Assembly: GCF_002196705.1 (NCBI RefSeq)
Contig: NZ_NADJ01000036.1
Coordinates: forward strand, 62,001 to 126,000
Source: Desulfosporosinus sp. FKB
GTDB taxonomy: Bacteria; Bacillota; Desulfitobacteriia; Desulfitobacteriales; Desulfitobacteriaceae
DNA length: 64,000 bases
Direction: 5' to 3'
Numbering within the stretch: the stretch's first letter is position 1; the number at the start of each line of letters is the position of its first letter. A program made the translations under genes and the position numbers. Below, piece by piece: positions 2,807 through 26,869 of the stretch. The notes beneath the pieces are model-generated. The model was not told where the DNA came from and ran no database searches. It saw nothing but the letters and a program-made list of their open reading frames with translations.

Positions 2807-3060
2807 AAAAGGCCCAATCATCCTAAAAGGGACGATTGGACCGTGGTACCACCCATATTTATTTAATACTACACATATTAAATCACTCTTTCCGTATTAA
2901 AAATAATACGGCATCTTTTGTAACGTGTGGATTATCACGTCAACTCCTACTACCATTTCGGGTTGCTGCTCAAGAGGCCATTCAATATTTATTCCACACT
3001 GATTCTCACCAGCCATCAGCTCTCTGACGCTTCCTAAATAGTTACTCTTCTCTATCATCG
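2807..3060 (-). promoter_or_regulatory. T-box riboswitch leader of trpS (tRNA-Trp responsive)
   Basis: Read on the minus strand, the leader contains the T-box core GGGTGGTACCACGG (2829-2856 region). Directly after it comes a terminator whose arms CCAATCGTCC and GGATGATTGG (2811-2842) are followed by CCTTTTA. The upstream part folds into long paired regions compatible with stem I. A UGG triplet at 2980-2978, inside GAATGGCC, sits where the specifier codon is expected and agrees with the downstream trpS. Binding of uncharged tRNA-Trp would favour the antiterminator. Confidence 0.92.
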
Positions 3061-3183
3061 CTTTTAATTACTATTTATATTAACTAGTAGTTTATCAGTT
3101 TAAAATCATTAAATCAAGTTTCATTCGTCAACCGTTCTATACGTCTGTCCCTACAGCAACGGAAAAAACCGAAATTCTCATGA

Positions 3184-11064: not shown

Positions 11065-11069
11065 AAAAT
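11065..11069. repeat. Target-site duplication AAAAT, distal copy
   Basis: AAAAT immediately precedes the TGTGGCA terminus and is matched by AAAAT at 26841-26845 directly after the other terminus. A 5-bp duplication is what Tn7-type transposases make. Confidence 0.85.
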
Positions 11070-11211
11070 TGTGGCAGAACCCATTTCTTTTCCAACAAAG
11101 GAACTATATCTTTTCCAAAAGCCCCCCTTTATAGGGAGGCTTTTAGATTACGATTTGTTATTATGGAAGCATAAAGTTTCCTTTAGAGCAAAAAGGAAAC
11201 ATATAACTTCC
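11070..11211. repeat. Transposon end distal to ssrA with repeated transposase-binding-like sites
   Basis: After the terminal TGTGGCA there are three spaced 17-bp repeats: GGAACTATATCTTTTCC (11100-11116), GGAAGCATAAAGTTTCC (11165-11181) and GGAAACATATAACTTCC (11195-11211). A matching site, GGAAGCATATCTTTTC, lies in the other end. Repeats of this kind in Tn7-like ends are bound by TnsB; here that is an inference. Confidence 0.75.
11117..11144 (-). terminator. Terminator of the two-gene cargo operon
   Basis: AAAAGCCCCCC and GGGAGGCTTTT form a GC-rich hairpin with flanking A and T runs about 105 bases past the stop of the nuclease-like gene. It lies within the transposon end between two of the repeats. 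Confidence 0.75.
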
Positions 11212-11248
11212 ATATGATATATTTGTTGTTAGCTTCACTTATTAGTTA

Positions 11249-12673
11249 TTAATCCCCATAAATTTGTTTTCTGGGAATTAATCTAGTATCTATACGAGTT
11301 GTCTTTTCAACAAAATCAAACAAATCAAACATTAATTTAGTAGTTAATTCATTAAAATCATTTCCAAGTACCTCTCTAATTGACTTCTTTTCACTTTTTT
11401 GTGGTAATAACGTTGAATAAATAATAATGTCCATATATCTTAAAATATCTTTAGCTTCATTTGGTCTTCTTAATAAGGTAATACAAAGTTCTACTAAATT
11501 ATCAAAAAATCTTGGTTTAGTATCAATCATCTTTCTAATCTGGTCATAGTTCCGAGCAGTTTTTTCAAATATTTTATCTACTATAGCTAACACTGAACTA
11601 TATTTATCCAAATTGTAAATACCATTATAAAGAAAAAGTAATACTCCATGTTTAACATCACTTAAACTAGTACGTATTACATAACTACAGGCCTTGAAAA
11701 TAGAAATAGTTAATAAAATAATTAAATCCATTACAATAATTTGATGATTTTTATTTAACGGGTTTAACTTATCAGCATATTTAGATAATAACGAAAGAAT
11801 ATTATGAAGATTAGTATGGTCTTCACTTATCCAATAGTGATATTTACGGTAGTTAAGTAATTCAGCAATTTGTTTTTCGGAGATTTGTTCTTGTTTTAAA
11901 AATAGTTCCTCAGAAAATATATTAATGCCATCTAATTCATTTATATTATATATACGTTCTAAAGCAACTAAATTTTTTCCATCCATTAATGAAACATTGA
12001 GCTTATTAGCGACTTCTCTCAAATGAGATGGAATTGTCTTTTTCCCCATAACTAAATATCCCCGAGTACTATCGAGGCTTTCCATTACTCCTTTTAACCA
12101 GTATAAACGATTTGATGGGCTAACATTTTCTCCATTTTTGCAATCCACGATTATCGGTTCTATTTGAAAGTCATCATGAACATTTATCCCAAGGACATCA
12201 ACATCGGTAAGTTCACCAATACCATCCCGTCTACCTGATTGCTCCTGTTCACCGTAACCCGCAATTTTTACGTCTATTCTTGCATAATGGCCCATTTGCC
12301 ATAAAATCTGTTTAAATTTAATTTTTAATTGCATATCCAAATCTGTGGATTTCTTGAACTCTTTTATCATTGACGAAGCAGGTCTTCCAATATTACCGTT
12401 TTCAAGTTTATCTTCCTTATTCTTGATGATATTAGTTTTATTTTCTGCCATTTTGGGATTTTCCTTAAACATAGAAATTTGTGTTTTGGGAGTATCACTT
12501 TCAATTTCTATACTATTTTGTTTCTCCTCATTCATGATAGAAGGTGCGTCAGGCAGTATGGGGTTTTCTATTTTAGTTTGGTCATAATTGGAGGTGTATG
12601 ACTCTTTATTTGAATCAAGCGGAGTGTTTTCATTTTGTGCCTTTGTTTGATCATTATCACTTTTAATTTCCAA
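11249..12673 (-). CDS. PD-(D/E)XK nuclease-like cargo protein
   Basis: A TTG at 12673, 7 bases after GGGAGG, gives 474 residues. Residues 1-110 are polar and probably disordered. Then come QILWQMGHYARIDVKIAGYG and GELTDVDVLGIN, with IIVDCKNG about 15 residues later. D159, D177 and K179 fit the D...(D/E)-x-K core of the restriction-endonuclease fold. The next stretch, RGYLVMGKKTIPSHLREVAN, resembles the helix-strand that follows in Mrr-like nucleases. The C-terminal half (about 240-474) is helical and unrecognised. The gene starts one base after the stop of its partner, so the two are translationally coupled. A role in DNA restriction or defence is likely but unproven. Confidence 0.7.
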   Translation of the reverse strand: MEIKSDNDQTKAQNENTPLDSNKESYTSNYDQTKIENPILPDAPSIMNEEKQNSIEIESDTPKTQISMFKENPKMAENKTNIIKNKEDKLENGNIGRPASSMIKEFKKSTDLDMQLKIKFKQILWQMGHYARIDVKIAGYGEQEQSGRRDGIGELTDVDVLGINVHDDFQIEPIIVDCKNGENVSPSNRLYWLKGVMESLDSTRGYLVMGKKTIPSHLREVANKLNVSLMDGKNLVALERIYNINELDGINIFSEELFLKQEQISEKQIAELLNYRKYHYWISEDHTNLHNILSLLSKYADKLNPLNKNHQIIVMDLIILLTISIFKACSYVIRTSLSDVKHGVLLFLYNGIYNLDKYSSVLAIVDKIFEKTARNYDQIRKMIDTKPRFFDNLVELCITLLRRPNEAKDILRYMDIIIYSTLLPQKSEKKSIREVLGNDFNELTTKLMFDLFDFVEKTTRIDTRLIPRKQIYGD

Positions 12674-12674
12674 G

Positions 12675-13943
12675 TCATTTCCTCCCTTTAAATGTATAAA
12701 CGCCTTGAATAACATTGAGAAGTTCTGTTGCCATCTCTGGTGTTACATCTTTCTTTTTGTTTGCTTCCTTTATTGATTTGAAAGCACTAACACTTTGGCC
12801 CTGAGTACCTATAAACCTTTTTATTTCATCATCATTTTCTTTTCCACCCTCTACCTTTTCTCCATAGAGAATGAGTTCCTTTGCTAATTTTACAGCCCTA
12901 ATATTCGCTTCAGTATCAATCAATCTGAAGGAATACCAGTTTCCCCCAGTACTATCCAATGCTCCTATACCCTTCGAAGCCAGCAAGAAATACTGTTCTT
13001 TTGCTACTGTGGTTGAACGAAGTCTATATCCTATTGTGGAATCCATAAGAGCATTAAGTATATAAACTGGATTCGTTATTGGATATTTTGCAAAATTCTC
13101 TCCTGTTCTAACACAAGCAACTATGTCCCTTGCTTTCTCAAGTATAATCTTTTCTGATGGGTCCGTATTATATGGTGTAAATAAAAACGGGTGGTCAATA
13201 CCTTCCATTCTAACAACAGGAGTGGGGAGGATTGCTTTAGCAACCAAGGCTTGCATCACTGGGTTTTTAGATATTTCGACAGGAAATCCTTGATACACTT
13301 TTATCTTTGTCATTGCTTCTTTGAACTCAACAGAAGAAAATTGTTCGATAATCGCGTGTGCCGAAATAGCATTTTCGTCCCAATACATAGGGGTACTTAT
13401 AAGATGTATATTATCTTCAATAGTAGTAAATTGAAGTAGTTGCGATTCACGTCCAAAATACATTAATCTCCTAAGTTGTTCTTCGTCTAAATTATAACGC
13501 TCTTTTACATCTTCTGTTGTAAGAGGCGCAGTTGACAATTCTTGTAAAATATCAATAGTTCCCAACTCAATTTCCTCTGGAGACATCTCTTCAGTTAAAT
13601 ATTCCGAAAGAGTTTCATAATTGCTTTTTAAGTATTTAGATTTTATATAAATCTTCTCTGGTTTATTCTTCTTACCCATAAGTTGAACAAGGCCACAGTC
13701 CTCTAATACATTAAACACTTGTTTTAACCACATAACATCAACTCCGTATTGATGAGCGGCTATTGGCTCGAAACGCTGATAGTCAACTACATCCATACCA
13801 TGTAAGGTTGATATAACCTGCCCAGCCATCCCAATAGTCCTAGTGGCTGTATAATCGGTCAAATACCCACTTGTTGGATCAACATTTGCAGATACAGCAT
13901 TATGCAAATCCTGACATCTCAATGAATATAATTCGTTCTCCAT
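12675..13943 (-). CDS. Unrecognised cargo protein with winged-helix-like segments
   Basis: This 422-residue soluble protein is not recognised. Residues about 55-100 (VMWLKQVFNVLEDCGLVQLM followed by a basic turn) and 130-180 (ILQELSTAPLTTEDVKERYN, then a second helix pair) look like two winged helices. The remainder contains mixed strands and helices, including HPFLFTPYNTDPSEKIILEK and NPVYILNALMDSTIGYRLRS. The C-terminus is a charged helical tail. It is the first gene of an operon with the nuclease-like protein. AGAGGTG precedes the ATG, and a promoter overlapped by a palindrome lies upstream. It may be a DNA-binding or sensor partner. Confidence 0.7.
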   Translation of the reverse strand: MENELYSLRCQDLHNAVSANVDPTSGYLTDYTATRTIGMAGQVISTLHGMDVVDYQRFEPIAAHQYGVDVMWLKQVFNVLEDCGLVQLMGKKNKPEKIYIKSKYLKSNYETLSEYLTEEMSPEEIELGTIDILQELSTAPLTTEDVKERYNLDEEQLRRLMYFGRESQLLQFTTIEDNIHLISTPMYWDENAISAHAIIEQFSSVEFKEAMTKIKVYQGFPVEISKNPVMQALVAKAILPTPVVRMEGIDHPFLFTPYNTDPSEKIILEKARDIVACVRTGENFAKYPITNPVYILNALMDSTIGYRLRSTTVAKEQYFLLASKGIGALDSTGGNWYSFRLIDTEANIRAVKLAKELILYGEKVEGGKENDDEIKRFIGTQGQSVSAFKSIKEANKKKDVTPEMATELLNVIQGVYTFKGRK

Positions 13944-13977
13944 TTTGAAACACCTCTTGTTTATCTAATCCCCTTGA

Positions 13978-14008
13978 CTATTGTACAATAGTTACAATTT
14001 TCGAACAA
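13978..14008 (-). promoter_or_regulatory. Putative promoter and operator palindrome of the cargo operon
   Basis: On the minus strand TTGTTC (14008-14003) and TACAAT (13985-13980) are 17 bases apart, 37 bases before the first cargo start codon. The -10 lies inside the perfect palindrome CTATTGTACAATAG (13978-13991), which could be an operator for self-regulation. Confidence 0.5.
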
Positions 14009-14158
14009 TACAAAGGGGGAAATAATCAAAAGGTGTTGAATTTATTCTATATCCCTAAATGATTAGCGTATTTAGTCTCAGTGATTAATTATGCGGAAGC
14101 AAAAATCGTTAGTTTTTACCTATTATCACCTCAAACCAAGTTCTATTAAAGCATCTAT

Positions 14159-15418
14159 CTATACCTTATTTTCAAAGCTATTGCTATAAAAATTCTTATT
14201 TATTAAAATACCCACTTTTTCTTTACTTGGGTATATTCCCTTCTCATAGAGGTCGAATACAATTCGTTTTATTTGTAAATATCTCTGTTCTCTCCTTTTC
14301 TCCAATAAAATGCTTTGCTGGGTATCTCGAACTTCTTGCAATTCTTTTGTTTCATTTGGAAATGCGGTTTTGATTGTTTGTCTAGATAGATGAAACATCT
14401 CGGCTACCTTTCCAATTGGAGGAATTTCAACATTATCTTTAGCCATATTTAATAATTCCTGTAGCCTTTGTTTTAGCTGTACGTTATCTTTCGCTTTTAT
14501 ACGATTACCTTTTTTAATTTTCCTTTCTAATTTAGTTTGTGCCGACGTTATATCATTTTCAGAAAGAATTTTAGAATACATCCTTTTAATGGGAATATTT
14601 ATCGAATAACATAATTTAAGTAAAGTTTCCCCATTAGGAATTTCCTCTCCATTTTTCCAATAATTTAGCGTATTAACACCTACTCCTGATTGACGACTTA
14701 TATAATCCATACTTTTTAGTTTATTTTTTAACATGATTAGATTTTGGGATAAATTATTTAAACTCATTTTACCTTCATATTTTAGAAATTCACTAATGTT
14801 TGAAACTACCCACTTTGACCAGTCCTCATCTTTTACCCCTGTTATGTTATTTTCTTGTCCTAACCATTTTGAACAGTAAAGGCAAAATCCAAGCCTAGAG
14901 CGGCCTGAGATTTTTGGATTTTTCTTTCCACAATGTGGGCACTCAGAAACTAAAGATATTTTATGTTTGGGGCAATAATCAACCATTAATAAGTACCATA
15001 GTAAAGGTTCGTATATAATCTCATTTCTATCATGCCATTCTGTGTAGCATTTTGGGCACCAGGCTTTATGGCCTTTAAGGGGAACTAATATTAAATCCTT
15101 TGTGTTCCAGGTAGTTAACAATTTCATATTTTTTAACCCTGTGAATTCCTCTAGAATAGCAATTAAATCTTGACCCGCCTTTGAGAAACCATTTATATTA
15201 CCTAGTGTTCTGTAGTCTGACTTTAAATTCAATGCTTTTTCAGATTTTAAAATAATACCATATAATAAAGTCCCAACTTTTAAGTGGTGAGCATCGGCTA
15301 AACGGTTGATGTGACTTGTTAAACTTTCAACATAATATCTTGTACCTATACCCCTTGGTTTTAATGAATAGAGCTTAGTTGGAACACATTGAACAAAACA
15401 CCTATTGCTTTTTAACAT
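14159..15418 (-). CDS. tniQ: TniQ/TnsD-family target-selection protein (copy 1, intact)
   Basis: From the ATG at 15418 (after AGAGGAGAAG) the product has 419 residues. The N-terminus has the TniQ pattern (YYVESLTSHINRLADAHHL near 29-45). Cys pairs at 121/124, 160/163 and 179/182, with C149 and H152, form the usual TniQ zinc sites (WCPKCYTEW, SECPHCGKK, GFCLYCSKWLG). Residues about 235-275 look like a repressor-type helix-turn-helix (YISRQSGVGVNTLNYWKNGE), and a further helix-turn-helix-like segment follows (AEMFHLSRQTIKTAFP). In Tn7-like elements such proteins bind the attachment site and recruit TnsC. The stop of tnsC is 31 bases upstream. Confidence 0.88.
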   Translation of the reverse strand: MLKSNRCFVQCVPTKLYSLKPRGIGTRYYVESLTSHINRLADAHHLKVGTLLYGIILKSEKALNLKSDYRTLGNINGFSKAGQDLIAILEEFTGLKNMKLLTTWNTKDLILVPLKGHKAWCPKCYTEWHDRNEIIYEPLLWYLLMVDYCPKHKISLVSECPHCGKKNPKISGRSRLGFCLYCSKWLGQENNITGVKDEDWSKWVVSNISEFLKYEGKMSLNNLSQNLIMLKNKLKSMDYISRQSGVGVNTLNYWKNGEEIPNGETLLKLCYSINIPIKRMYSKILSENDITSAQTKLERKIKKGNRIKAKDNVQLKQRLQELLNMAKDNVEIPPIGKVAEMFHLSRQTIKTAFPNETKELQEVRDTQQSILLEKRREQRYLQIKRIVFDLYEKGIYPSKEKVGILINKNFYSNSFENKV

Positions 15419-15449
15419 TATCTCTAAATCTTCTCCTCTTAAAAATACT

Positions 15450-16314
15450 CTACATAACCGCATCTCTTTTTGGGCTTCTGTTAAATGGTTTGGTACTGTC
15501 CTTTGTTGTATTGCTCTTTTCTGAATTATCCTGTGACTCATCTTCGGATTTTGCATAAACTAACTTCGAATCAATATCTCCTCCCGATTGTACTTCCTTC
15601 ATTTTTCGCTCTCCTTCCTCTATACTCTGATACATCCCGTCAAGTCTGTACCCTGAAAATTTTGCTTCTTCTAAATGCTCCCGAGTTAAGGTTTTAGCAT
15701 CTGAATCTAAAGCAAGTGCATAAGCGTCCATGAGCCAAAGTTTTAATGTCCCAATGCACCCCAAAGAATTTTTGTAAAAATACTTCCAGTCTTGTTTATT
15801 AATTAAATCTTCTGCCTTTTGTTCAAGTGGCATATTTTGAAGAAGCTTTTTGGCTGTTTTCCCAAAGATATTGACCTCACTTGTAACTTCTGAGCGATAA
15901 CGCGGAAAATCTACAATTCTAGTTCTTTGATTAATCTGGTCTGTTGACTTAAGGTTTAAATCCACTAAAAGCGAAAGTAAGTCATACGTCCCAACCAGTA
16001 TAATCGAAGTTTCGCTCAAGTTGGTTAGAGATTTAATTAAATCAACTGACCAGTTAGATTCTTTTCCACTTACTACTCGCAATATATGGTGTGCTTCATT
16101 AATAATAAGAGCCATTACGTCCCTGTACCCCCGATGGTCCACATATAAAAACTATTCTTTCAGGTACGTCATTTGTAATAAGCCTAATTGTCTTATTAAT
16201 TGCTTCATCTAAGAACTTGTGGGATACAATGCAATCTGCAAAGTACTTTTTACGTTCTTCCTTAGTTTTATCTAACAACTCTACTGGGAATTTATTTTTC
16301 CCTTCTTCGCCCAT
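15450..16314 (-). pseudogene. tnsC: tnsC/tniB transposition ATPase, internally deleted and frameshifted
   Basis: The gene starts normally (GGAGG, then ATG at 16314) and reaches the Walker A motif, reading VFICGPSGV. The expected GKT and about the next 60-100 residues are absent. After a frame change the sequence resumes as RDVMALIINEAHHILRVV, the Walker B region. The rest (ETSIILVGTYDLLSLL, VDFPRY, then a helical C-terminal part) is typical of TniB/TnsC. The ATP-binding lysine is gone and the two parts are in different frames around 16130, so no working ATPase can be made. This should block target selection by the transposon. Confidence 0.85.
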
Positions 16315-16439
16315 TTAATAAAATCCTCCATTACCAGGTAAACAAACGATTAACGGGCCTTAATTTGAAAGCTCCCTTAGTCATGTAAGCAGTCAAGCAA
16401 AACCAGCAACTTTTCGCCACAAACCATACAACATTTTTG

Positions 16440-17144
16440 TTACTGTGTAATGGTCTTCCTATGTTGGAGTCTGTAGCTGTTTCCTGTCATGTTTAAAATC
16501 TCGCAGTGGTGAATAAGGCGGTCTAAAATCGCCGTTGTAATTGTGGCATCCCCTAAAAAGTCAGCCCATTCATCGAATCCTTTGTTTGAGGTAATGATGA
16601 GTGATGTTTTCTCGGACATTGAAGACACGAAACCGAAGAACAAATTGGCTTCTATTGTAGAAAGTGGCATGAAGCCAACTTCATCAATAATAACCAGTGA
16701 TGCCGAGTTGAGTATTTTTATTCGTCTCTTACTGGCGGTCGAGATTTGCGAGGTTTTTAGTGTAATTATGAGTTCATCCAAGGTTGTAAAAGCTACGGCA
16801 TAACCTAGGTTTAAAGCCTGTACCGCTAAGGACAAGGCCAAATGCGTTTTCCCAATACCAGGTGGTCCCAGGAAACAAATGTTGAACGCTTGCTCAACCC
16901 AAGTCATATCGGACAACCTTAACATCTGTTCCTTGGATACGCTGCGTTGGAATCCGAAGTCGAAGGTTTCCAGAGTCTTTTCGGCCGGTAGATTTGCTCT
17001 TCTTCTGCGAATTAGATTTTGCTTTTCCGTCCGAAGACGTTGTTGCTCTGAAAGGAAAACTTCAACACTTTCGAGAGGCGTGAGATTATTCTTTTTAGCA
17101 TAAAGGTTTTCTAAATCAACAGGGACCAAATGAAGTCCCGACAC
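16440..17144 (-). CDS. istB: IS21-family helper ATPase IstB
   Basis: The 234-residue frame has the Walker [14 protein letters not shown] near residue 93, Walker [13 protein letters not shown] near 151 and the IstB sensor region [12 protein letters not shown]. These are typical of IstB, the AAA+ regulator that acts with the IstA transposase. The frame extends a little upstream of the GTG at 17144 through [11 protein letters not shown], so the true start may be a few codons earlier, close to the istA stop as usual. It appears intact. Confidence 0.9.
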
Positions 17145-17172
17145 TAATGCATTGACACGTTCAATTCGTTCA

Positions 17173-18679
17173 TTAATGGCTGCTACCTACCTTTGCATAC
17201 ACATCCAGAGAGCGTTTCTCAGTGGTCACATGATACTTGTTGTTGCTAACCGGAATAGCATTCAGGACGATGACTTGTTTTGGTTTAGCACTGTGCTCTA
17301 AAAAATCCTTTACATAGGTTATTCCGAAGAGTTTGCTCACCTCACAATATCTGATGGCATTGAGTACGTCATCAATCCCATAGTTATCGCATAATGTTTG
17401 CAACAACCGGAACTGATCACGGGCATAGCGTGCTTTTTCTGTTCGAATTGTCTGCAGAAAACCGGTTGCCTTGAATAATAACAGCTCATCAACAGTAGTT
17501 TGAGCTTTATCCATCGAGTCTGTAATATCTCTGGAATGACTGGTGCTCTTAATTAATTGACCTCTGCCGGTTGAGATTGGATGTTCACAGATAAATTCAC
17601 CGAATACGGTCATAATCGTTAATTTTTCATTCTTCGCTTCAATGCTGACCTCTTTTTGGTTGTTGTATGTACCAAGAGGTAAAGAGTACCGATTGCTGTC
17701 GTAGACGATCGTGTTATCTTTCCGAACGTTTCTGCAGATGGTTACATCACCGTTTAATCGGATGTCCAGCAGGGGTCTTAGGTGTTCACGTTCATCTTCA
17801 AACACCTTGGCTGGTATCTTTTTGGTAGTGCCGTGAACTTTCGCATTACCGGTTCTATCCAACCATTTTAGGAACGAACTGTTGAGAACTTCCTCATCAG
17901 CAAAAAGTCTGTTTTCAAGGAAATTATACTTGATGAATTTAACCACATTCTCGATCTTACCCTTCCTTTCCGGATCAGCTGCGCGGCAGAGGTATTCTTA
18001 AATTGCATTCTTGCCGGAACTTCTCAAACTCAAAGGTATGAATAATATCTCCATAGTTTTCTGAAACGCTGACGATACTATCCTGATCAAATACCATTTC
18101 TAGCGGCATCCCACCTATATATCTAAAGCACTCATGACAGCTTGAAACCAGATCGCTTGTTGTGAAGGGCCGAGTTTGAAAGAATGCCCATTTGTAACGT
18201 GCATGAGCGAGTACAAAGGCTGCAAAGCGAATCTTTACACGCTGCCCATCAATGGATTGCATCCACTTTTCACCAAAGTCCACCTGTAACTGCTGCCCCA
18301 TGGGGAGCTCTTCTACAGCCTCATAATCTCTGGGATGATTGGATTTTTTAAGATTATATTCCTCTCGTAACCCTTTGACATAACGGCTGACAGTTCGTTC
18401 CTTGATATCCTCTTTATAATGCTCCTTAAGCCAGTCGCATACTTGGGCGGCTGTCATTGTTGGATATTGTGTCAACCAACTAATGATAATTTCCTCATAT
18501 TTTGAAAGTAGCAGTTCTCGGTTAATGCTATACAGCTGTTTGGCGAATTCATCCGCTGTCATGTTCCAATATCGTGTTACGGTTTCCCGATTTATGTTCA
18601 GCTGCTTGGCAGCCCGAGACCGAGTGAATCCAATCTCTTTAAGTTGCTGTATCTGTTTATACATCTTAAATCCTTTCAT
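17173..18679 (-). pseudogene. istA: IS21-family transposase IstA, frameshifted
   Basis: The upstream part (18679-17975) has the N-terminal helix-turn-helix (GFTRSRAAKQLNINRETVTR) and the rve core (LQVDFGEKWMQ, FDQDSIVSVS). The downstream part (17946-17173) has the C-terminal domain (NRYSLPLGTYNNQKEVSIEA). They are in different frames. In the other frame the junction near 17990 reads LCRAADPERKGKIENVVKF, the expected continuation, so a single extra base splits the gene. The insertion sequence is therefore probably inactive by itself. Confidence 0.85.
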
Positions 18680-18836
18680 TCTAACAGCTCCTGACCTCTT
18701 TGCTAGCCCCTATTCTAACAAAGTCCGATCGCTGTATTTGATTTAAGTTGTATGGTTATTGGCAAAAAGTTGTATGGTTTGTGGCAGAAACTTGTATGCT
18801 TTCATTGGCGTAAATGTGTATGGTTTAGTTTACCAT

Positions 18837-21506
18837 TCACAAGTCATCATCCAAATCAAAGTTTATTTCTTCATCTTCGTTAAAGTCATGCTCATTGACG
18901 TATTCGGGTTCATCAATCTTATGAACTTCAAAACCACCTTGGATAACATGTAACTGAGGTGCCATTTCAGCATTTAGTATTCTTTGATTTAAAATTTCTT
19001 CGTTAACTTCCGCACGAGAAAGAAAATCTGCTAATTTCCTTGCTGATATACCTGACTTCCCTGCATTATCTCGTTTTTGTTTCATCAATTGTTCAGAAGC
19101 AATTTGAATTTCAGTTTCCGTTCTGTTCTTGAACACCGAGTAGTATTGTGAATAACACATGACCCAACGCTTGCGAACAAAGCAATAAACAATACCCACA
19201 TTCCATGGGTCATATCGGACAGGTACTCTTGTTCCTGAAACATCAGGTTTATAAAAATCGTCACAGTAATAATAAAGGTAATTAACTTTTACACCTCTTT
19301 GAGGGTCAACTTTAGCCGTACCATTACCTCTCTTTACTGGTGGAAGTGTCATAATCATAAAATCTTTGTTGTATGGAATAAACCGAAAACGTCTTTTGCC
19401 CGAAATCACTATCCCACGCTCAAATGTTTCCCTTGGAGATTCTCCAAGAGCTGAATGCTCTTGAGTATCATAAAACTCATAGAAATACTCCTTAAGTAAT
19501 TCATAAAGAGCTGGCAGAGTCCAAACCGCATGGTTTTTGGGGTTAACCGACTTAGAAACTTGACGGACATTTTTCATGATTTTCGTATTTCCCTTCAAGT
19601 TATGAATGAGTTGCGACATTGTCGTGCCAAAAAGTCGTTCCCCAATCGAACCAAAACGTGCCTTATGGGCAGGTCGAATTTTATGTGTTACTCCAAACAT
19701 TGCCAAAAGCGACTGAAAATAGATACTTTTAAAATCTTTGCCGTTATCTGTCACAATAATTTGCGGAAGCCGATTAACTCGCCTGACGCATTCCCTTAAA
19801 ACCATCATGTCACTTCGATAGGATGGGGCGTCATAGGTAATATAAAATGCCAGAACTCTTCTTGAGAAAGCATCTACTAATAACGTAAGCCAAACCTTCC
19901 CTAAGTTCTTACCAGTTACTGAGTGATTTGTTTCCAAATCCATTTCGGTATGGTCAAGATGAGCAATTTCGAATGGACGTTCTCCATGCCTTGGAGTATC
20001 TGGTTCAAGTACCCAGTAAAATGGTTCATTTTGATAAGCAGTTCTTGGTCCCTCTGTATTCAGTACATGTTCATATCTGTGTCTACACTTAATCATTTTT
20101 TTAAAGGTCTTTGAACTTGGTACAATAATACCATGTGTTTTGCAATACTCTTGAAGCTTTCCATAAAGAACTTTCATGCTTTGGTTCGTTACTGTTTCAT
20201 TTTCTTCAATAAATTGAACTGTCTTGGATAACGTTTCCTCTGGGAGATGAGGGTCCCTGTTACCACGTAAATTTGTTCTTGGAATTAACCCAATGAATCC
20301 CGAACCATATTGGTTCTCAGCTTCCATGTAAGCATTTATCCAGTTCCTAATTGTACGAGATGTTAGCCCGACTACACAAATATCTTTAATCTTCTTACCC
20401 TCTAAAGCTGGCAAGATGGTTTTATATCTGTAATTGGCTTCCTGAAGTTCTTTCTCACTAGCTTGGGCAATTTTTTCGTTTATTACGGCATTAGTGTTCT
20501 TGATAATATCAGTATCAACGCCTTTTATTCGCCCTTCACTAACCATGTTGTAAAATTGGTCTTTGGGTATGTGGATAATATCTTCTTCAGATAAGAGCGA
20601 AATGCTCTTTTCTCCCACGTTTATTATCGTCCATAATTTACCTTTCCAAATAACTTTCACACCAGGAGCAATTTCAAGCGTATGGTCCTCAAACATGGGA
20701 CTCTTCTTACGATAAGTCATCGTTTTATATGCTAAAGCAGTTTGTTCGTCGATAAATACGTGGGTATATTCGGGTTCGCTTAATACCTCTTCCTCTAAAT
20801 TTATATAAATTTTACTTCTTGCAATTAGGTAGTAAATATCATCTGCCTCAACTCCATCAGTTCTTAAAAGGTCAGCCAAAGGAATTCCAGGATTTTCACG
20901 AATATAAGCTAAAATTTTCTTAATAACTTCTGGCAAGACTTCTGTTTCGTTATCCAATAGATAATCTTCAAGAAAAACTATATTTCGTTGAATTTGCACG
21001 TTAATTTCATCTGAAGATTTTACCCAGTATTGAAGTCCAAACTGCTTTGCATATTCTTCTCCAGGTGGGCAATGCCATTTACCGTTAATTTTAACGTAAC
21101 GATTAGGGGAATCCTTTGCTAATTGAACTAACTCTTCCTCTGTTTTCCATTCCTCCCAGCCAGCTTTATCCTCATGTAGCACAAAGTAGTCAGCTGTATG
21201 ATATATCGTGATAACCTTTTCTTTGAGTGATTTATAGGATAATTTTATTTTGGGAGGCTGGTCATAGAATTCTTTAACAGAGTTATCATGCTCTTTAAGA
21301 TACACCCCTGGAAGTTCGACTTTATTGCTTTCAAATTGAATAGACATACCCATTTTCCGACTAGGGTAGGACCCTACAACATTTGTTCTTCCTCCCCCGA
21401 CTCTCCGCGAGGGTTCGCTTTCCCTGACCCTACGAATTATTTCAATTGCCGAGTCAGATAATCCAAGCTTTTTATTCCATTGTTTAAACTCATCTTCAGT
21501 GAACAT
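18837..21506 (-). CDS. tnsAB: Fused TnsA-TnsB transposase of the Tn7-like element
   Basis: The 889-residue protein joins two enzymes. Residues about 40-170 fit a TnsA endonuclease: E59, D106 (TADYFVL) and K121 (EEWK) have the E-D-K spacing of TnsA, and VKEFYDQPPKIKL is a typical strand. Residues about 370-480 look like helix-turn-helix DNA-binding domains. Residues 510-630 are the rve transposase core with D518 (HLDHTEMD), D587 (VTDNGKDF) and E623, 35 residues between the last two. A Mu-type C-terminal region follows. TnsA cuts the 5' ends and TnsB the 3' ends, giving cut-and-paste excision. All catalytic residues are present. GGAGGG lies 6 bases before the ATG. Confidence 0.88.
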   Translation of the reverse strand: MFTEDEFKQWNKKLGLSDSAIEIIRRVRESEPSRRVGGGRTNVVGSYPSRKMGMSIQFESNKVELPGVYLKEHDNSVKEFYDQPPKIKLSYKSLKEKVITIYHTADYFVLHEDKAGWEEWKTEEELVQLAKDSPNRYVKINGKWHCPPGEEYAKQFGLQYWVKSSDEINVQIQRNIVFLEDYLLDNETEVLPEVIKKILAYIRENPGIPLADLLRTDGVEADDIYYLIARSKIYINLEEEVLSEPEYTHVFIDEQTALAYKTMTYRKKSPMFEDHTLEIAPGVKVIWKGKLWTIINVGEKSISLLSEEDIIHIPKDQFYNMVSEGRIKGVDTDIIKNTNAVINEKIAQASEKELQEANYRYKTILPALEGKKIKDICVVGLTSRTIRNWINAYMEAENQYGSGFIGLIPRTNLRGNRDPHLPEETLSKTVQFIEENETVTNQSMKVLYGKLQEYCKTHGIIVPSSKTFKKMIKCRHRYEHVLNTEGPRTAYQNEPFYWVLEPDTPRHGERPFEIAHLDHTEMDLETNHSVTGKNLGKVWLTLLVDAFSRRVLAFYITYDAPSYRSDMMVLRECVRRVNRLPQIIVTDNGKDFKSIYFQSLLAMFGVTHKIRPAHKARFGSIGERLFGTTMSQLIHNLKGNTKIMKNVRQVSKSVNPKNHAVWTLPALYELLKEYFYEFYDTQEHSALGESPRETFERGIVISGKRRFRFIPYNKDFMIMTLPPVKRGNGTAKVDPQRGVKVNYLYYYCDDFYKPDVSGTRVPVRYDPWNVGIVYCFVRKRWVMCYSQYYSVFKNRTETEIQIASEQLMKQKRDNAGKSGISARKLADFLSRAEVNEEILNQRILNAEMAPQLHVIQGGFEVHKIDEPEYVNEHDFNEDEEINFDLDDDL

Positions 21507-21553
21507 ATAACGCCCTCCATTTTTTGTAAATTATTTTTTACCATAAAACAAGT

Positions 21554-21587
21554 AAAGACCGCCTAGTCAAATGACTAAACGGTCTTT
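21554..21587 (-). terminator. Hairpin between tniQ copy 2 and tnsAB
   Basis: AAAGACCG and CGGTCTTT, with inner TAGTCA and TGACTA, form a stem with small internal mismatches, flanked by A/T runs. It lies between the stop of the second tniQ gene and the tnsAB start on the same strand and would partly insulate them. Confidence 0.7.
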
Positions 21588-21742
21588 AAAAAATATCTTA
21601 TGTATTTATCTGTTTTCATTCTTTCCTTAAAATGTTTTAAGGCTTTGCCAACGAACTCATAAATCCTCATGTCTTCCCCTTATTTTTACACTATTCAACT
21701 TTCTAAGTTTAACCCTAGGCTGAAAATGAGTCAACAACTAAA

Positions 21743-23124
21743 TTACTCACCTTGGTTAGTTAAGCCTGAGTTTCTAATACTCTCTTTCCACGCCTTTTGA
21801 TAAGCTTTTTCCCGTAGTAAAATATTAGGTGGAAGAAGACTTTCAATTTTACGTCGGCTTGGATAGATACCCGAGTCGTATAAGACCTTTATTACTTCGT
21901 TTATTCTTTGGCAACCTTCATCAATACGTTTTATTTTCTGAGCATGAACAAACGCCGAGTGTTTTTTAGCTATCTCTTTACATAAATTCGGGAAATGTCT
22001 ATAGAGTAATTTTTTATCGCATCCGATCTTCATAGCAACTTCATGAACAGAAGGATAAGTTGTATCATCATTAGATATAAAACTTCTAAGAATATTTTCG
22101 ATTATGTTCCAATCATAGCTCCTTTTCACTAAGGATACTTTGATATGTTTTTCTGGTAAGATATAAACATTATCGTAACTCGCTGAATTTAAATCTATTT
22201 TATTAACTCCGAAGATTTCCCTTATATCTATACCTACCATATAGCAAATTTCCAAGAATGTTCTTAGAAAGGGAATATGCCTCCCCTCATACCAATATCT
22301 TGCGGTTGTTAACGGAACATTAAATTTCTTTGAAAAAGCAACCCTCCCGCCAGCCTTGTCAATTATCGCTTTTAAAAAGATATACATTTCTTCGACTGAT
22401 GGACGGAATCCAGGGTTATCCTTCATCTCAAGAAGTTCTTCAATATTCTTCGCTATAAAGTAATCTAGTGAGGCTTGCCCCACGGTTGTTTCTCTGTCGA
22501 GTTCCAACTCGGTGGAACCCAACCAACAACCACAAAACGAGCAAAAGCCGTTTCTCGATTTACGTGATAGCATAGGGATTTCCTTTTCACATTGGGGGCA
22601 TTGAGTTTTAAGCGTTATCCCATGAGTTCTACATATATTAACTGCTTTGATACTCCAAAGCAAAGGTTCATAAATATCTTTGTTAGAACTTTTCCATTCC
22701 TCAAAACACATTGGACACCATGCTTTAGTCTGTCGAAGAGTCCCTCTATTCGTTAATATATCGTGTAATGGTAACAATGACAGATTTCTAAGGGTATTGC
22801 ATCCTGTTAACTTTGATAATACCCGAGCAAAATCCTCTGATACAATTCCAAACCCATTTAATTCAAACCCATTACCGTAGAATCCACTACCACCAGCTTC
22901 ACTGCTGTTTGTTAGATAGGTTTTTCCCAGTATTGGTGCAATTACTTTCCCAATCAGAGTTCCAACTGAGACAGAATGGGCTTCTGCCAGTCTTGATAAA
23001 AAGCTTGTTTGGCTCTCACCTAAACCTGTATATAGCCCGAGGGGAGGTAAGGTATAAAGTCGTGGACTAATAATAACACCCCATGAATACCGACTTGAAT
23101 TACTTAATCTTCACCTATAATCAT
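21743..23124 (-). pseudogene. tniQ: TniQ/TnsD-family protein (copy 2), frameshift near the start
   Basis: The main frame carries all TniQ landmarks: PPLGLYTGLGESQTSFLSRL and AEAHSVSVGTLIG at the N-terminus, then the zinc clusters (WCPMCFEEW, TQCPQCEKE, FCSFCGCWLG) and a C-terminal helix-turn-helix (MKIGCDKKLLYRHFP). This frame has no start codon at its head. A perfect GGAGG site precedes an ATG at 23124 that lies one frame away and reads only MIIGED before a stop. A single-base deletion around 23107-23113 explains this exactly. Internal starts (TTG at 22777) would remove the TniQ core, so the gene is probably dead. Confidence 0.78.
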
Positions 23125-23197
23125 TCTAAATACCTCCAAGACGTACTTTACTCAGTCCCAATATTACACACATTGTAAATTTTTACAAAAAACAACA

Positions 23198-23242
23198 TAC
23201 TAATAAATAAAGACGGGAGTAATCCGTCTTTATTTATTAGTA
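23198..23242 (-). terminator. Long near-perfect hairpin, bidirectional terminator
   Basis: Arms of about 20 bases (TACTAATAAATAAAGACGGG and its complement at 23223-23242, one G-T pair) surround a 5-base loop, with A/T-rich flanks in both directions. It lies between the remnant frame at 23292 and the second tniQ gene. Confidence 0.7.
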
Positions 23243-23291
23243 TATGTAATTAATCAGGTTCAGCGATTTTAGCATAAAATATTCGCTTTGG

Positions 23292-23489
23292 CTACTTTAT
23301 TCCTCTTAGTTCATCCTTTTGAATTTTGAGGTTTTGTTGTATTAAGTTAATATTTGATTGTAGCATAGTAAATTCTGGAGTATTTTCGCACTCTATTTGA
23401 CCCCCGATAATTCTGTCAATATAATCTATTGGTACTCCCACAAACCCATGATTATTGGCGTATAAACATGCTAACCACGCAGTAACATA
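23292..23489 (-). pseudogene. Remnant of an unknown gene
   Basis: A 65-codon frame bounded by stops has coding-like composition: WLACLYANNHGFVGVPIDY, then IDRIIGGQIECEN and a helical end (IQQNLKIQKDELRGIK). It has no start codon apart from an internal ATG and no ribosome site, so it is probably the tail of a deleted gene. I do not recognise it. It sits between the restriction-modification genes and tniQ inside the transposon. Confidence 0.4.
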
Positions 23490-23702
23490 TTACCATATTA
23501 TACTATTGATTCCAACATTATATTCCCATATTTAGCAGGATTCCCTTTCTTTCTGTCTAATATCATAAGTAGCTATACTATATTAATTAAATATAATAAT
23601 TAAATAAGAACTTTGTCAGGGGTTAATAGCAATATTTAACTAGTCTATTTAGGAGATTAGTCCCTCCTAATCTAATTTATGGAAATGAAAGGAGAATCTC
23701 TC
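23490..23702 (+). other. Upstream region of the restriction-modification operon
   Basis: The region is AT-rich. It contains an inverted repeat AGATTAG...CTAATCT (23654-23660 and 23667-23673), which ends about 17 bases before the ribosome site of the methylase gene and could be an operator or translational control element. No confident promoter was found. Confidence 0.4.
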
Positions 23703-25655
23703 ATGGCAAAGAAAGAAGTAAAAACCGATTTATGGGTCAGAGACTTACTCAAAGAAGCTGACCTCAATTTAGAACCACAAGGAAGTTCTATCAAAGAGCT
23801 TAATGAAGCACTTAAAACGGCTTCCAAAAATGGCACTGGAAACGTAGGATTTCCAGAGTATATTGGAACAGTCAAAGATTTTATTATTGTAATTGAAGAT
23901 AAAGCTGACCTTAATAAGCATGTAAAAATGGATGGTAAGGTCATCAGCCTTGAAGTTCAAGCCGTCAAGGACTATGCCGTGAATGGAGCCTTATTTTATG
24001 CACAACATTTAATTAAAAATACTACTTATAAAAAAGTGTTGACATTTGGTGTGTCTGGTAATGAGAAACGACACAAAATCAGTCCAATCTATGTGGATGA
24101 TACAGAGTACTACAGAGAGCTTCCAGAAGTGGAAACCTTTATTTCATTTAACGAGAAAAACATTGAAGAATACTATGTCAAAGAGGTGTTGCAGGAGAAA
24201 ACTGATATTGAGAAAGAAACTGCCGAGATATTAAAGGATGCGGCTACTCTACATGAAGACTTGCGTAACTATGGCAACCTGAAAGATATTGATAAGCCAC
24301 TGGTAGTATCTGGAATCCTACTTGCATTAAATGAATTAGAGCATAAGAACTTTAGTGTAGAGAGTTTAAATGCTGATACCTTAAAGACAGACGGACAAAA
24401 GATATACGAAGCAATCGAAGCCAACTTAAAGAGAGCCCATGTTGCACCAGATGTTAAAAGGGATAAGATATTAAGCCAGTTTTCAATAATCAAAGACACT
24501 ACGATATTGAATGAGGTCAATTCTACACTTGGCAAAACCCCACTTAGATATTATACAGATTTTTTATATGAACATATATATAAGTGCATCAAATACACTC
24601 GTTCTGCCGAGGACTATCTTGGACGGTTCTATGGTGAGTTCATGAGCTACAGCGGTGGCGATGGTCAGACACTTGGAATAGTTCTTACTCCAAAGCATAT
24701 TACAGAGCTGTTCTGCGACCTGCTTGATTTGAAGCCTACAGACATTGTGTTAGACCCATGCTGTGGTACAGCAGGATTTCTTATTGCTGCTATGCATAAT
24801 ATGTTCAATCAGATTATCGGAGCAAAAGAATTGAGAACCAAAGAAGAAATTACATCCGACCCAGACATAAAGAACATCCGTAAAAATCAGCTTCATGGAT
24901 TTGAGTTGCAGTCTTATATGTTTACTATTGCAACTACTAATATGATTCTTCGTGGCGATGGAAAGAGCAATCTAATCAATGCTGATTTCTTAGCACAAGA
25001 GCCAGACAAGATACAGTTGAAAGGGGCAACTGTTGGAATGATGAACCCACCTTATTCGCAGGGGTCAAAGAAGAATCCAAATCTTTATGAGATTTGCTTT
25101 ACGGAACATTTACTTGATTCATTGGGAGAGGGTGCACGCTGTGCAGTGATTGTTCCTCAATCTTCTATGACTGGAAAGACTAAAGAAGAACAAGCCATCA
25201 AGACTAATATATTAAAGCATCACACATTAGAGGGTGTAATCACTTTGAACAAGGACACTTTCTATGGTGTAGGTGTAATGCCATGCATTGCCGTATTTAC
25301 AGCAGGAGAACCGCATCCACAATCAAAAGAGTGTAAGTTCATAAACTTTGAAGATGATGGCTTTAAAGTTGCCCCACATATCGGATTAGTAGAAACAGAA
25401 TCTGCTAAGGATAAAAAGCAACATTTGCTTGATGTTTGGTTTAGTAGAATAGATGCTGAAACAAATTTCTGCGTACAATCAACAGTTGAAGTTTCTGACG
25501 AATGGTTGCATAGCTTTTACTTTTTTAACGATGAAATACCAACAGAAGACGAGTTTGATAAGACCATAGGTGATTATTTATCATTTGAATTTTCCATGAT
25601 TATGCAAGAAAGACAGAACCTTTTTGGTGGAGGTAATTCCAATGTTAAGCCTTAA
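23703..25655 (+). CDS. BcgI-like restriction-modification enzyme (nuclease plus N6-adenine methylase)
   Basis: From the ATG at 23703 (AAGGAGA 7 bases before) the product has 650 residues. The N-terminus (about 40-130) looks like a PD-(D/E)XK nuclease: GFPEYIG, then DFIIVIEDKAD with D59, E65 and K67. A helical linker follows. The methylase core has motif I VLDPCCGTAGFL near 350 and motif IV NPPYSQG near 447, the N6-adenine class of HsdM/BcgIA proteins. A specificity subunit overlaps the end of the gene. Such enzymes methylate their own sites and cut foreign DNA, in BcgI on both sides of the site. It is the ssrA-proximal cargo of the transposon. Confidence 0.85.
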   Translation: MAKKEVKTDLWVRDLLKEADLNLEPQGSSIKELNEALKTASKNGTGNVGFPEYIGTVKDFIIVIEDKADLNKHVKMDGKVISLEVQAVKDYAVNGALFYAQHLIKNTTYKKVLTFGVSGNEKRHKISPIYVDDTEYYRELPEVETFISFNEKNIEEYYVKEVLQEKTDIEKETAEILKDAATLHEDLRNYGNLKDIDKPLVVSGILLALNELEHKNFSVESLNADTLKTDGQKIYEAIEANLKRAHVAPDVKRDKILSQFSIIKDTTILNEVNSTLGKTPLRYYTDFLYEHIYKCIKYTRSAEDYLGRFYGEFMSYSGGDGQTLGIVLTPKHITELFCDLLDLKPTDIVLDPCCGTAGFLIAAMHNMFNQIIGAKELRTKEEITSDPDIKNIRKNQLHGFELQSYMFTIATTNMILRGDGKSNLINADFLAQEPDKIQLKGATVGMMNPPYSQGSKKNPNLYEICFTEHLLDSLGEGARCAVIVPQSSMTGKTKEEQAIKTNILKHHTLEGVITLNKDTFYGVGVMPCIAVFTAGEPHPQSKECKFINFEDDGFKVAPHIGLVETESAKDKKQHLLDVWFSRIDAETNFCVQSTVEVSDEWLHSFYFFNDEIPTEDEFDKTIGDYLSFEFSMIMQERQNLFGGGNSNVKP

Positions 25656-26721
25656 TGATAAAAGGTGGGAGTCATTCTTCATATCTGGGGATGAGGGCAT
25701 ATTTCATATTGAAGCTACTCAAAGTGGAATTGATAAGAATAAATTGTTCTTCGATGGAGCTTCTGAAATTCCTTATGTGACACGAAGTGCGTCTTCTAAC
25801 GGAATAAATATGTTCATTCCGTCAGTCCAACCCGACAAATATGCTATTGATAGTGGGAACTGTATTACAATCGGATTGGACACACAAACTGTGTTTTATC
25901 AACCACATGATTTTTATACAGGACAAAATATTCAAGTCTTAAACTACGATGATATGAATAGGAATTCTGCTCTATTTGTTAGTGCTATGCTAAAGGTACA
26001 AATGGAGAAATTCAACTGGGGTGGAAATGGTGCAACATTAGGTAGGCTCTCACGTACAAAAATAATGCTTCCAGTAAATGATTTTGGAAGTCCAGATTAC
26101 AAATTTATGGACGATTATATTAAAGATCGGATAAATCAAAAGCAAGAGCAATGTGTTAAATATTGTAAAAAACAGCTTAGATTGCTAGGAGAACAGGTTT
26201 CAATCCCAAAAACATCAGCTATAGATTGGCAACCATTTTATATCAATTCCATTTTTGATAAACCCAAACGCGGAAAGCGCATTGTAGATAAAAACCATAT
26301 TTCAGGCAATACACCGCTTGTATCTTCATATGGTCAAGAAAATGGTGTAACTCATTTTATCGGCAATGAAGACAAGGTTAGAAAATTTAATGTATGTCTT
26401 AGTATTGCAAATGGTGGTTCATCTGCGGGAAAGACTTTCTATCATCCATATACATTTGTTGCCGCAGACCATGTTACCCAATGTTGGAACAGGAATCTGA
26501 ATCAATATCAATACTTGTTTCTAGCAACAGTTATGACAAAAGCTCTAACTGGTAAGTATAGTTTCAGCCATGAAATCTCTGACCCACGATTAGCAAAAGA
26601 ACGCATCATGTTACCCGCTACAGATTCTGGCGAGCCAGATTATAAATATATGGAGCAATACATAAAAAATATGATGATAAAAAAATATAATAGTTATTTG
26701 AACAATTTAAAACAAAATTAA
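25642..26721 (+). CDS. Restriction-modification specificity subunit (BcgIB/HsdS-like)
   Basis: The ATG at 25642 follows GGAGG and overlaps the methylase gene by 14 bases, so the two are coupled. The 359-residue protein has two similar halves. Each is a target-recognition domain ending with a strand and a helical spacer: RTKIMLPVNDFGSPDYKFMD near 145 and KERIMLPATDSGEPDYKYME near 325. These two spaced copies are typical of S subunits that read a split recognition site. The site cannot be deduced from the sequence. Confidence 0.85.
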   Translation: MLSLNDKRWESFFISGDEGIFHIEATQSGIDKNKLFFDGASEIPYVTRSASSNGINMFIPSVQPDKYAIDSGNCITIGLDTQTVFYQPHDFYTGQNIQVLNYDDMNRNSALFVSAMLKVQMEKFNWGGNGATLGRLSRTKIMLPVNDFGSPDYKFMDDYIKDRINQKQEQCVKYCKKQLRLLGEQVSIPKTSAIDWQPFYINSIFDKPKRGKRIVDKNHISGNTPLVSSYGQENGVTHFIGNEDKVRKFNVCLSIANGGSSAGKTFYHPYTFVAADHVTQCWNRNLNQYQYLFLATVMTKALTGKYSFSHEISDPRLAKERIMLPATDSGEPDYKYMEQYIKNMMIKKYNSYLNNLKQN

Positions 26722-26757
26722 AAAAATAGGGCTTCCTTCTCGGAAGTCCTATTTTTA
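26721..26757 (+). terminator. Bidirectional terminator after the restriction-modification operon
   Basis: AAAAATAGGGCTTCC and GGAAGTCCTATTTTT form a strong stem with a 5-base loop and T runs on both strands. It also faces transcripts coming from ssrA and could now serve as their stop. Confidence 0.85.
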
Positions 26758-26795
26758 TTTGAGGTGTTCTCTTAAACTTTTGATTTAACAAAAGT

Positions 26796-26840
26796 GGAAG
26801 CATATCTTTTCAAAACGGAAATTTTATGGGTATTGCCACA
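26796..26840. repeat. Transposon end proximal to ssrA
   Basis: Read inward on the minus strand from 26840 this end starts TGTGGCAATACCCAT. The 17-bp repeat GGAAGCATATCTTTTCA lies at 26796-26812, matching the sites in the other end. Fewer copies are visible here than at the distal end. Confidence 0.8.
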
Positions 26841-26845
26841 AAAAT
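26841..26845. repeat. Target-site duplication AAAAT, ssrA-proximal copy
   Basis: AAAAT follows directly after the terminal TGCCACA and equals the copy at 11065-11069. It is immediately followed by TGTGGCAAT, an inverted copy of the transposon end lying in flanking DNA. Confidence 0.85.
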
Positions 26846-26869
26846 TGTGGCAATTATTGAGTGCTTATT

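What the first reader, a model, noticed from the sequence alone, without database searches (positions are those of the whole stretch)
11249..13943. Unrecognised two-gene cargo operon: winged-helix-like protein plus PD-(D/E)XK nuclease
The genes are separated by one base, share a promoter overlapped by a perfect palindrome and a private terminator, and sit as cargo at one end of a Tn7-like element whose other cargo is a restriction system. The second protein has a D...D-x-K nuclease core. The first matches nothing I recognise. Position and coupling fit a new anti-phage or anti-plasmid module.
Basis: partly seen in the sequence, partly recalled or inferred. Interest (0 to 1): 0.78.

Follow-up and report, generated by a model that had tools for sequence, protein, structure and literature searches.

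The report
Mobile winged-helix plus nuclease gene pair
Two tightly coupled genes, a probable DNA-binding protein and a probable nuclease, ride at the edge of a transposon and recur as the same pair on plasmids, prophages and chromosomes of distantly related bacteria; they match no named family in the libraries searched and look like an undescribed DNA-restriction module, although no function has been tested.

Summary
The pair is real. Gene A (12675-13943, -, 422 aa) ends one base before gene B (11249-12673, -, 474 aa). They are outermost cargo of a Tn7-like element that I delimited to 11070-26840 (ends matching at 13 of 15 bases, 5-bp duplication AAAAT), beside a tmRNA gene. B carries TD-x-D...DCK, a PD-(D/E)XK/Mrr-like core. 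A shows weak, convergent evidence for two winged helices.

Recurrence, the decisive test, is passed. Of 25 loci opened, 23 carry A and B adjacent in the same order; one has A alone, one a B fragment. Five loci left out of the profiles and found through one partner all had the other. A and B distances correlate (r=0.90, 17 loci, 0 of 5000 permutations).

PADLOC, NCBIfam and Pfam (at its cut-offs) name neither protein. Some relatives lie beside known defence genes or in prophages, but I ran no background control.

Best reading: a restriction (type IV-like) module without methyltransferase or NTPase, A reading DNA and B cutting it. Restriction is inferred. The palindrome is not shared by relatives; the proposed terminator overlaps transposon-end repeats. 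Structure prediction failed and was then closed.

The parts
12675..13943 (-). Gene A, 422 aa: probable tandem winged-helix protein with a conserved C-terminal half of unknown fold; first gene of the pair
   Evidence: ORF; relatives; weak wHTH matches
13401..13571 (-). Second probable winged helix of A (about residues 125-181)
   Evidence: Pfam TFIIE_alpha E 0.0016 and Dimerisation E 0.0014, both below cut-off; PDB profile hits MarR 3bdd E 0.0034, NmtR 2lkp E 0.0042
13632..13787 (-). First probable winged helix of A (about residues 53-104, approximate)
   Evidence: profile hits to GntR/MarR/IclR-type regulators, E 0.17-0.85
11249..12673 (-). Gene B, 474 aa (TTG start): probable PD-(D/E)XK (Mrr-like) nuclease with an N-terminal extension of about 110 residues missing from most relatives aligned
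   Evidence: ORF; alignments; Mrr_cat E 0.0011, below cut-off
12137..12208 (-). Probable catalytic motif of B, T156-D157-x-D159 ... D177-C178-K179
   Evidence: alignments and motif scan
13977..13992 (.). Perfect 16-bp palindrome upstream of A; not found upstream of A in 14 other loci
11176..11200 (-). Terminator-like hairpin after B, overlapping transposon-end repeats
11070..26840 (.). Tn7-like element that carries the pair, from end to end (TGTGGCA(G/A)(A/T)ACCCAT at both ends)
   Evidence: 13 of 15 identical, only such combination in the two flanking stretches, 0 of 300 shuffles
11065..11069 (.). Target-site duplication AAAAT, left copy
26841..26845 (.). Target-site duplication AAAAT, right copy
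14159..15556 (-). TniQ-family protein with HTH
   Evidence: Pfam TniQ E 4.2e-12; PADLOC TniQ_IB 6.4e-30
15450..16142 (-). TniB/TnsC fragment; the match begins only at profile position 121 of 189
   Evidence: Pfam TniB E 8.2e-05
18837..21506 (-). TnsA-TnsB fusion transposase
   Evidence: Pfam TnsA-like N, TnsA C, rve, Mu-transpos_C
21743..22777 (-). Second TniQ-family protein
   Evidence: Pfam TniQ E 2.5e-08
23679..25655 (+). Type IIG restriction enzyme-methyltransferase, the other cargo
   Evidence: PADLOC REase_MTase_IIG E 1.9e-162
25624..26721 (+). Specificity subunit of the restriction system
   Evidence: PADLOC Specificity_II E 5e-34

Best explanation
A and B are the two subunits of a small mobile restriction-like module. 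A, with probable tandem winged helices, is proposed to recognise incoming DNA (a base modification, a sequence or a structure). B, a probable PD-(D/E)XK nuclease of Mrr-like make-up, is proposed to cut it through D159, D177 and K179. Shown here: co-occurrence, order, close spacing, correlated divergence, a conserved catalytic-type motif, carriage on mobile elements, and no recurrent methyltransferase, NTPase or other third gene at the sensitivity used. Inferred: that A binds DNA, that B cuts DNA, that they act together, and that the target is phage or plasmid DNA. Without a partner methyltransferase, self-protection would have to come from the kind of DNA recognised, as in type IV (modification-dependent) restriction.
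For: A and B adjacent in 23 of 25 loci, with 5 of 5 loci left out of the profiles and found through one partner holding the other (found). Gap -44 to +10 in the 19 loci measured; distances correlate with r=0.904 over 17 loci, 0 of 5000 permutations. TD-x-D...(D/E)-(C/I)-K motif and sub-threshold Mrr_cat match. HTH regulators are 9 of 10 PDB chains met by the A profile at E<=1. Carriage by a Tn7-like element, prophages or phage contigs and plasmids. Lamassu-type, Nsn-type, ubiquitin-like or restriction genes near some copies. Winged helices are known readers of N6-methyladenine in nuclease fusions, PD-(D/E)XK-wH included (PMC11037411, abstract and section 20).
Against: No function tested and no structure obtained. 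B misses the Mrr_cat cut-off, only 2 of 9 members match at all, 0 of 5 further members match, and hhalign against E. coli Mrr finds nothing. Phage copy L014 has R in place of the catalytic-type K. One plasmid keeps A without B. The defence neighbourhoods lack a background control, and the plasmid-heavy sample reflects the collection searched. Two plasmid copies lie beside mobF, which fits a plasmid-transfer role as well.
Confidence: 0.5

Rival explanations
1. Toxin-antitoxin-like or abortive module: A is made first and restrains (and perhaps represses) the toxic nuclease B; disturbance by infection or by loss of the element frees B to cut cellular DNA.
For: Gene order with A first and close coupling; A persists without B in L009 whereas B without A was seen only as a fragment in L028; palindrome upstream of A in the window.
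Against: A is 393-456 aa in the 19 loci measured, large for an antitoxin; its C-terminal half is conserved; the palindrome is not shared by 14 other loci.
Confidence: 0.2
2. Plasmid or element competition device: the pair serves its carrier by destroying rival plasmids or incoming conjugating DNA, with the target set by plasmid biology and not by phage.
For: 30 plasmid records by hand count; two copies beside mobF and type IV coupling-protein genes (L005, L069).
Against: Also in chromosomes, in phage contigs and in a Tn7-like element; the plasmid collection was the most searched, so the share is biased.
Confidence: 0.2
3. DNA repair, recombination or element-maintenance function that only happens to travel on mobile elements.
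For: No defence label in the libraries; PD-(D/E)XK enzymes include repair nucleases (general knowledge).
Against: Sparse distribution: A absent from the 59 other genomes of a 60-genome sample of relatives that held 28 of the same genus, and from 396 of 398 genomes of the phylum.
Confidence: 0.1

Closest known systems
Mrr / Mrr_cat (PF04471), type IV restriction
   Same: Match from D-x-D to the end of the domain (residues 157-238 of B, profile 35-114 of 115); no partner methyltransferase
   Different: Below cut-off (19.5 against 21 bits), 2 of 9 members match; DCK or ECK where E. coli Mrr reads QAK; the probable DNA reader is a separate protein; no hhalign match to E. coli Mrr
Winged-helix fusion endonucleases (DpnI-like PD-(D/E)XK-wH, N6mA-dependent; PMC11037411, abstract and section 20)
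   Same: Combination of winged helix and PD-(D/E)XK nuclease; methyltransferase genes are rare beside them (section heading in the outline)
   Different: Those are single fused proteins; here two proteins with two probable winged helices and a large extra C-terminal half; homology not tested beyond the library searches
MksBEFG / Wadjet plasmid defence (PMC10123090, passages)
   Same: A nuclease subunit working with DNA-handling partners against plasmids
   Different: MksG is TOPRIM-type and works with an SMC-like ATPase; no ATPase recurs here
Defence cargo of Tn7-like transposons (PMC8649781, passages)
   Same: Defence genes as cargo, restriction-modification the most common; the authors expect unknown systems among the cargo
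   Different: The words Mrr and winged helix do not occur in the main text; COG1715, the Mrr group by recall, is listed among the restriction COGs

Membership tests
PD-(D/E)XK nuclease superfamily (gene B) | Acidic pair plus lysine, D...(D/E)xK, conserved across the family | tested here: met
   Motif in 18 of 19 B sequences as annotated, K in 17 and R in L014; the 19th (L026) has its annotated start inside the motif and shows it in the extended frame
PD-(D/E)XK nuclease superfamily (gene B) | Restriction-endonuclease-like fold | not testable with these tools
Mrr family (PF04471) | Score at or above the curated cut-off | tested here: not met
   19.4 or 19.5 bits against 21; 0 of 5 distant members at E<=0.1
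Type IV restriction | Cuts modified DNA only | not testable with these tools
   Needs biochemistry
Type IV restriction | No cognate methyltransferase gene in the unit | tested here: met
   No methyltransferase family recurs in the ORF clusters of 25 loci (blastp E<=1e-8, so distant families could be missed); the window's own methyltransferase belongs to the separate type IIG system
Winged-helix DNA-binding protein (gene A) | Significant match to a winged-helix family | tested here: inconclusive
   Pfam below cut-off; two PDB profile hits at E 0.0034 and 0.0042, others 0.037-0.85
Known defence system of PADLOC-DB 2.0.0 | Profile match of A or B | tested here: not met
   No match for A or B of the window at E<=1; relatives gave only weak stray hits: Csa3 0.012 (1 of 10 A), TmtA 0.011 and a CARF-PDDEXK 0.047; 0 of 9 B
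Tn7-like transposon (carrier) | TnsA/TnsB, TnsC, TniQ, TGT...ACA ends, 5-bp duplication | tested here: met
   the TnsC ORF is a fragment
Type II toxin-antitoxin | Small antitoxin that neutralises the toxin and autoregulates through an operator | tested here: inconclusive
   A is 393-456 aa in 19 loci; operator-like palindrome only in the window; neutralisation not testable here

The most novel reading that the evidence does not exclude
A and B define a previously undescribed, anciently diverged two-protein immune family, spread over at least Bacillota, Actinomycetota and Pseudomonadota on plasmids, prophages and a Tn7-like element, in which a tandem winged-helix sensor with a novel C-terminal domain licenses a separate Mrr-like nuclease to destroy invading DNA without methyltransferase or ATPase.
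Probability: 0.42. Interest if true: 0.75.

Novelty: new variant of a known kind. Interest (0 to 1): 0.6.

Why it matters
A strictly ordered two-gene nuclease module that no library used here names would add a very compact restriction-type system to those known. It is small enough to clone and test directly, and its lack of a methyltransferase and an ATPase poses a sharp question: how does it tell foreign DNA from self? The profiles of A and B with the order rule can also be used to annotate pairs of 'hypothetical proteins' on plasmids.

Tried and rejected
TnsA-like nuclease of the transposon: rejected, because TnsA is already fused to TnsB at 18837-21506 and B has no TnsA match.

E. coli Mrr as a direct homologue: hhalign of the B alignment against Mrr gave no meaningful match.

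Palindrome as a conserved operator: not found upstream of A in the 14 other loci examined.

Phage-encoded family: no match in 50,697 phage records for window A, L014 A or L024 B. Five viral-contig scans gave three real loci (L014, L022, L023) and one spurious one, L019, which I dropped after reading its ORFs.

Third gene: clustering 820 ORFs of at least 100 aa from 25 loci (blastp E<=1e-8) showed as recurrent only IS transposases, a recombinase in L027 and L070, one gene shared by L020 and the window outside the element (DUF4317-like, name recalled), and opposite-strand shadow ORFs. Clusters made only of the near-identical L022 and L023 were not printed, and distant families would be missed.

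Empty site of the element: at the tmRNA locus of three congeners only the tmRNA side of the window matched; the left flank did not appear beside it, so no empty site was found.

Literature: the listings of nine searches showed no paper on this pair. Six accession numbers of relatives occur in no held main text. Supplements and most subscription papers were not searched.

Full report
OBSERVATION. A (12675-13943, minus, 422 aa) ends TGA, then one base, then the TTG start of B (11249-12673, minus, 474 aa), with AGGGAGG just upstream of that start. The palindrome ACTATTGTACAATAGT at 13977-13992 is exact; of 2000 base shuffles of the same 257 bp, 21 had one at least as long. The promoter scan listed no minus-strand site there. 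The terminator-like hairpin at 11176-11200 overlaps direct and inverted repeats of the adjacent transposon end. GC content is 0.36 for A and 0.30 for B against 0.42 for the window.

THE CARRIER. The other genes are a TnsA-TnsB fusion, a TniB/TnsC fragment, two TniQ-family proteins and a type IIG restriction system. The ends can be placed: TGTGGCAGAACCCAT at 11070 and its inverted partner ending at 26840 (13 of 15 identical), flanked by AAAAT on both sides. This was the only such combination in the two flanking stretches, and 0 of 300 base shuffles gave one. Repeats of about 21 bp just inside the left end resemble TnsB-binding sites (my reading). The right end lies next to a tmRNA gene at 26870-27221 (Rfam; ARAGORN called none). 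The pair is therefore the outermost cargo at the 11070 end. The TnsC match begins only at profile position 121 of 189, and IS21-type genes (16440-18679) lie between it and TnsAB, so the element may no longer move by itself.

RECURRENCE. tblastn in 72,556 plasmid records gave 10 records for A and 19 for B. Queries with relatives gave 6 (L008 A), 9 (L007 B, of which I dropped two weak Rubrobacter records), 5 (L027 B) and 15 (L024 A). By hand count these are 30 distinct records; I opened 17 of them. In genomes, A was found in 2 of 398 of the phylum (one is the window's own), 1 of 60 relatives (its own), 1 of 149 of the order of G335 (G335 itself) and 4 of 299 of the class of G590 (G590 itself; G667, which by its coordinates appears to be G335 again; G856; and a broken N-terminal relic in G806). 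B was found in 2 of 299 (own and G112) and 3 of 299 (G590, G667, G856). A scan of genome contigs with short exact peptides gave L001. Viral contigs gave L014, L022 and L023; phage records gave none. The pair is rare but widely scattered.

THE UNIT. In 25 loci (5 genomic including the window, 17 plasmid, 3 viral), profiles of A and B found both genes next to each other in the same order in 23. L009 has A without B (B also absent from its whole record), and L028 has a B fragment without an A ORF. The G806 relic and the spurious L019 are not among the 25. Five of the 25 were not used in the profiles and had been found through one partner alone: L069-L072 through A, with B downstream (E 5e-29, 1e-28, 1.7e-24, 4.4e-43), and L065 through B, with A upstream (E 1.9e-34). 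E-values are for 820 ORFs. In 19 loci the distance from A stop to B start is -44 to +10 bases, taking an alternative start for L026 (-4; the annotated start is at +242) and, for L006, a frame position upstream of the annotated start. As annotated, L069-L071 overlap by 26 to 35 bases and L072 has a gap of 121. Pairwise distances of A and B correlate with r=0.904 over 17 loci, and 0 of 5000 permutations reached this; that shows co-inheritance, not contact. Beyond A and B, only transposases, one recombinase, one gene outside the element and shadow ORFs recur.

PROTEIN B. The motif TD-x-D...(D/E)-(C/I)-(K/R) is found in 18 of 19 B sequences as annotated (K in 17, R in phage copy L014); the exception, L026, has an annotated start inside the motif and shows it in the extended frame. 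In an alignment of 16, four columns are invariant, two of them the D-x-D aspartates. Pfam Mrr_cat matches from the D-x-D onward at E 0.0011, below its cut-off; 2 of 9 members match at E<=0.1, and 0 of 5 further members. There is no PDB sequence match. One PHROG of unknown function matches the same stretch (E 0.00015). B is a probable PD-(D/E)XK nuclease with Mrr-like features, not a certified Mrr.

PROTEIN A. Pfam gives sub-threshold TFIIE_alpha and methyltransferase-dimerisation matches at residues about 125-181. An 18-sequence profile meets MarR 3bdd (E 0.0034) and NmtR 2lkp (E 0.0042) there, and GntR-, MarR- and IclR-type regulators at about 48-104 (E 0.17-0.85); 9 of the 10 chains at E<=1 are HTH regulators, the tenth is PscE. 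Two tandem winged helices are likely, not proven. The conserved C-terminal half (about 185-400) met nothing in the libraries searched.

CONTEXT. In L001 the pair stands 260 bp after four genes with matches to LmuA, LmuC and LmuB (the first matches Avs1a slightly better). L007 has NsnA and NsnB upstream, with an IS5 gene between. These would be Lamassu and Menshen by recall. L003 has an E1-like gene and a multiubiquitin gene downstream. L004 has a helicase with a type IIG match (5.5e-33) and an ATPase with weak REase_II matches. The one L013 neighbour scanned gave nothing. L022 carries the pair between a phage DNA polymerase and an integrase, and L023 looks alike by its ORFs; L014 carries it between portal and head-morphogenesis genes. 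L027 has an Eco57I-type methylase gene 1 kb away; L072 has annotated restriction endonucleases on both sides; L005 and L069 lie beside mobF. PADLOC was run on neighbours at 6 of 25 loci only, with no control neighbourhoods, so this association is suggestive.

MECHANISM AND RIVALS. The simplest model is that A reads DNA and B cuts it, without methyltransferase or ATPase. Winged-helix domains are known readers of N6-methyladenine in nuclease fusions, DpnI-like PD-(D/E)XK-wH enzymes included (PMC11037411: abstract and section 20 read). Here the two halves would be separate proteins. Rivals are a nuclease toxin held by A, a plasmid-competition device, and a DNA-processing role; the present data do not separate these. 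I put the restriction reading at 0.5.

NOVELTY. PADLOC-DB of 2023 (only weak stray hits), NCBIfam of June 2026 (10 proteins, two of them with weak stray hits) and Pfam at its cut-offs name neither protein. The annotated relatives opened are 'hypothetical protein', except B of L070, called a response regulator (L010 has no annotation). Nine paper searches listed nothing on it, nor did the passages I saw of PMC12839542, PMC12458937 and PMC8649781. A system named since 2023 in a source not held here cannot be excluded.

Noticed in passing
window 26841-27221: The Tn7-like element sits about 25 bp beyond the 3' end of a tmRNA gene. The words tmRNA and ssrA do not occur in the main texts of two surveys of Tn7-like elements (PMC8649781, PMC10293859); three other papers hold Tn7-like, tmRNA and attachment site together (listing only).
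   Followed up: partly
genomes of the window's genus: The tmRNA query matched 29 of 29 genomes, 24 of them more than once, some as near-full copies and many as short matches covering the tmRNA 3' end; the own genome has a second copy at 94% (C3:12053-12403). This looks like an integration hot spot, though split contigs could add to it.
   Followed up: no
window 26846-26857: Just beyond the right target-site duplication the flank itself reads TGTGGCAATTATT, like an element end pointing the other way, perhaps left by an older insertion.
   Followed up: no
window 15450-18679: TnsC appears split: ORF 15450-16142 holds only the C-terminal part of the TniB match, a 71-aa ORF at 16099-16314 precedes it, and IS21-type genes (16440-18679, IstA in two ORFs) lie between it and TnsAB.
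   Followed up: no
L065:7408-9126 and L004:4301-6343: Two distant copies of the pair have a GHKL-type ATPase gene nearby on the opposite strand (L004 by Pfam; L065 by eye only); they did not cluster together at blastp E<=1e-8.
   Followed up: no
window 2825-3067: A T-box leader on the minus strand (Rfam, 133.6 bits), unrelated to the pair.
   Followed up: no
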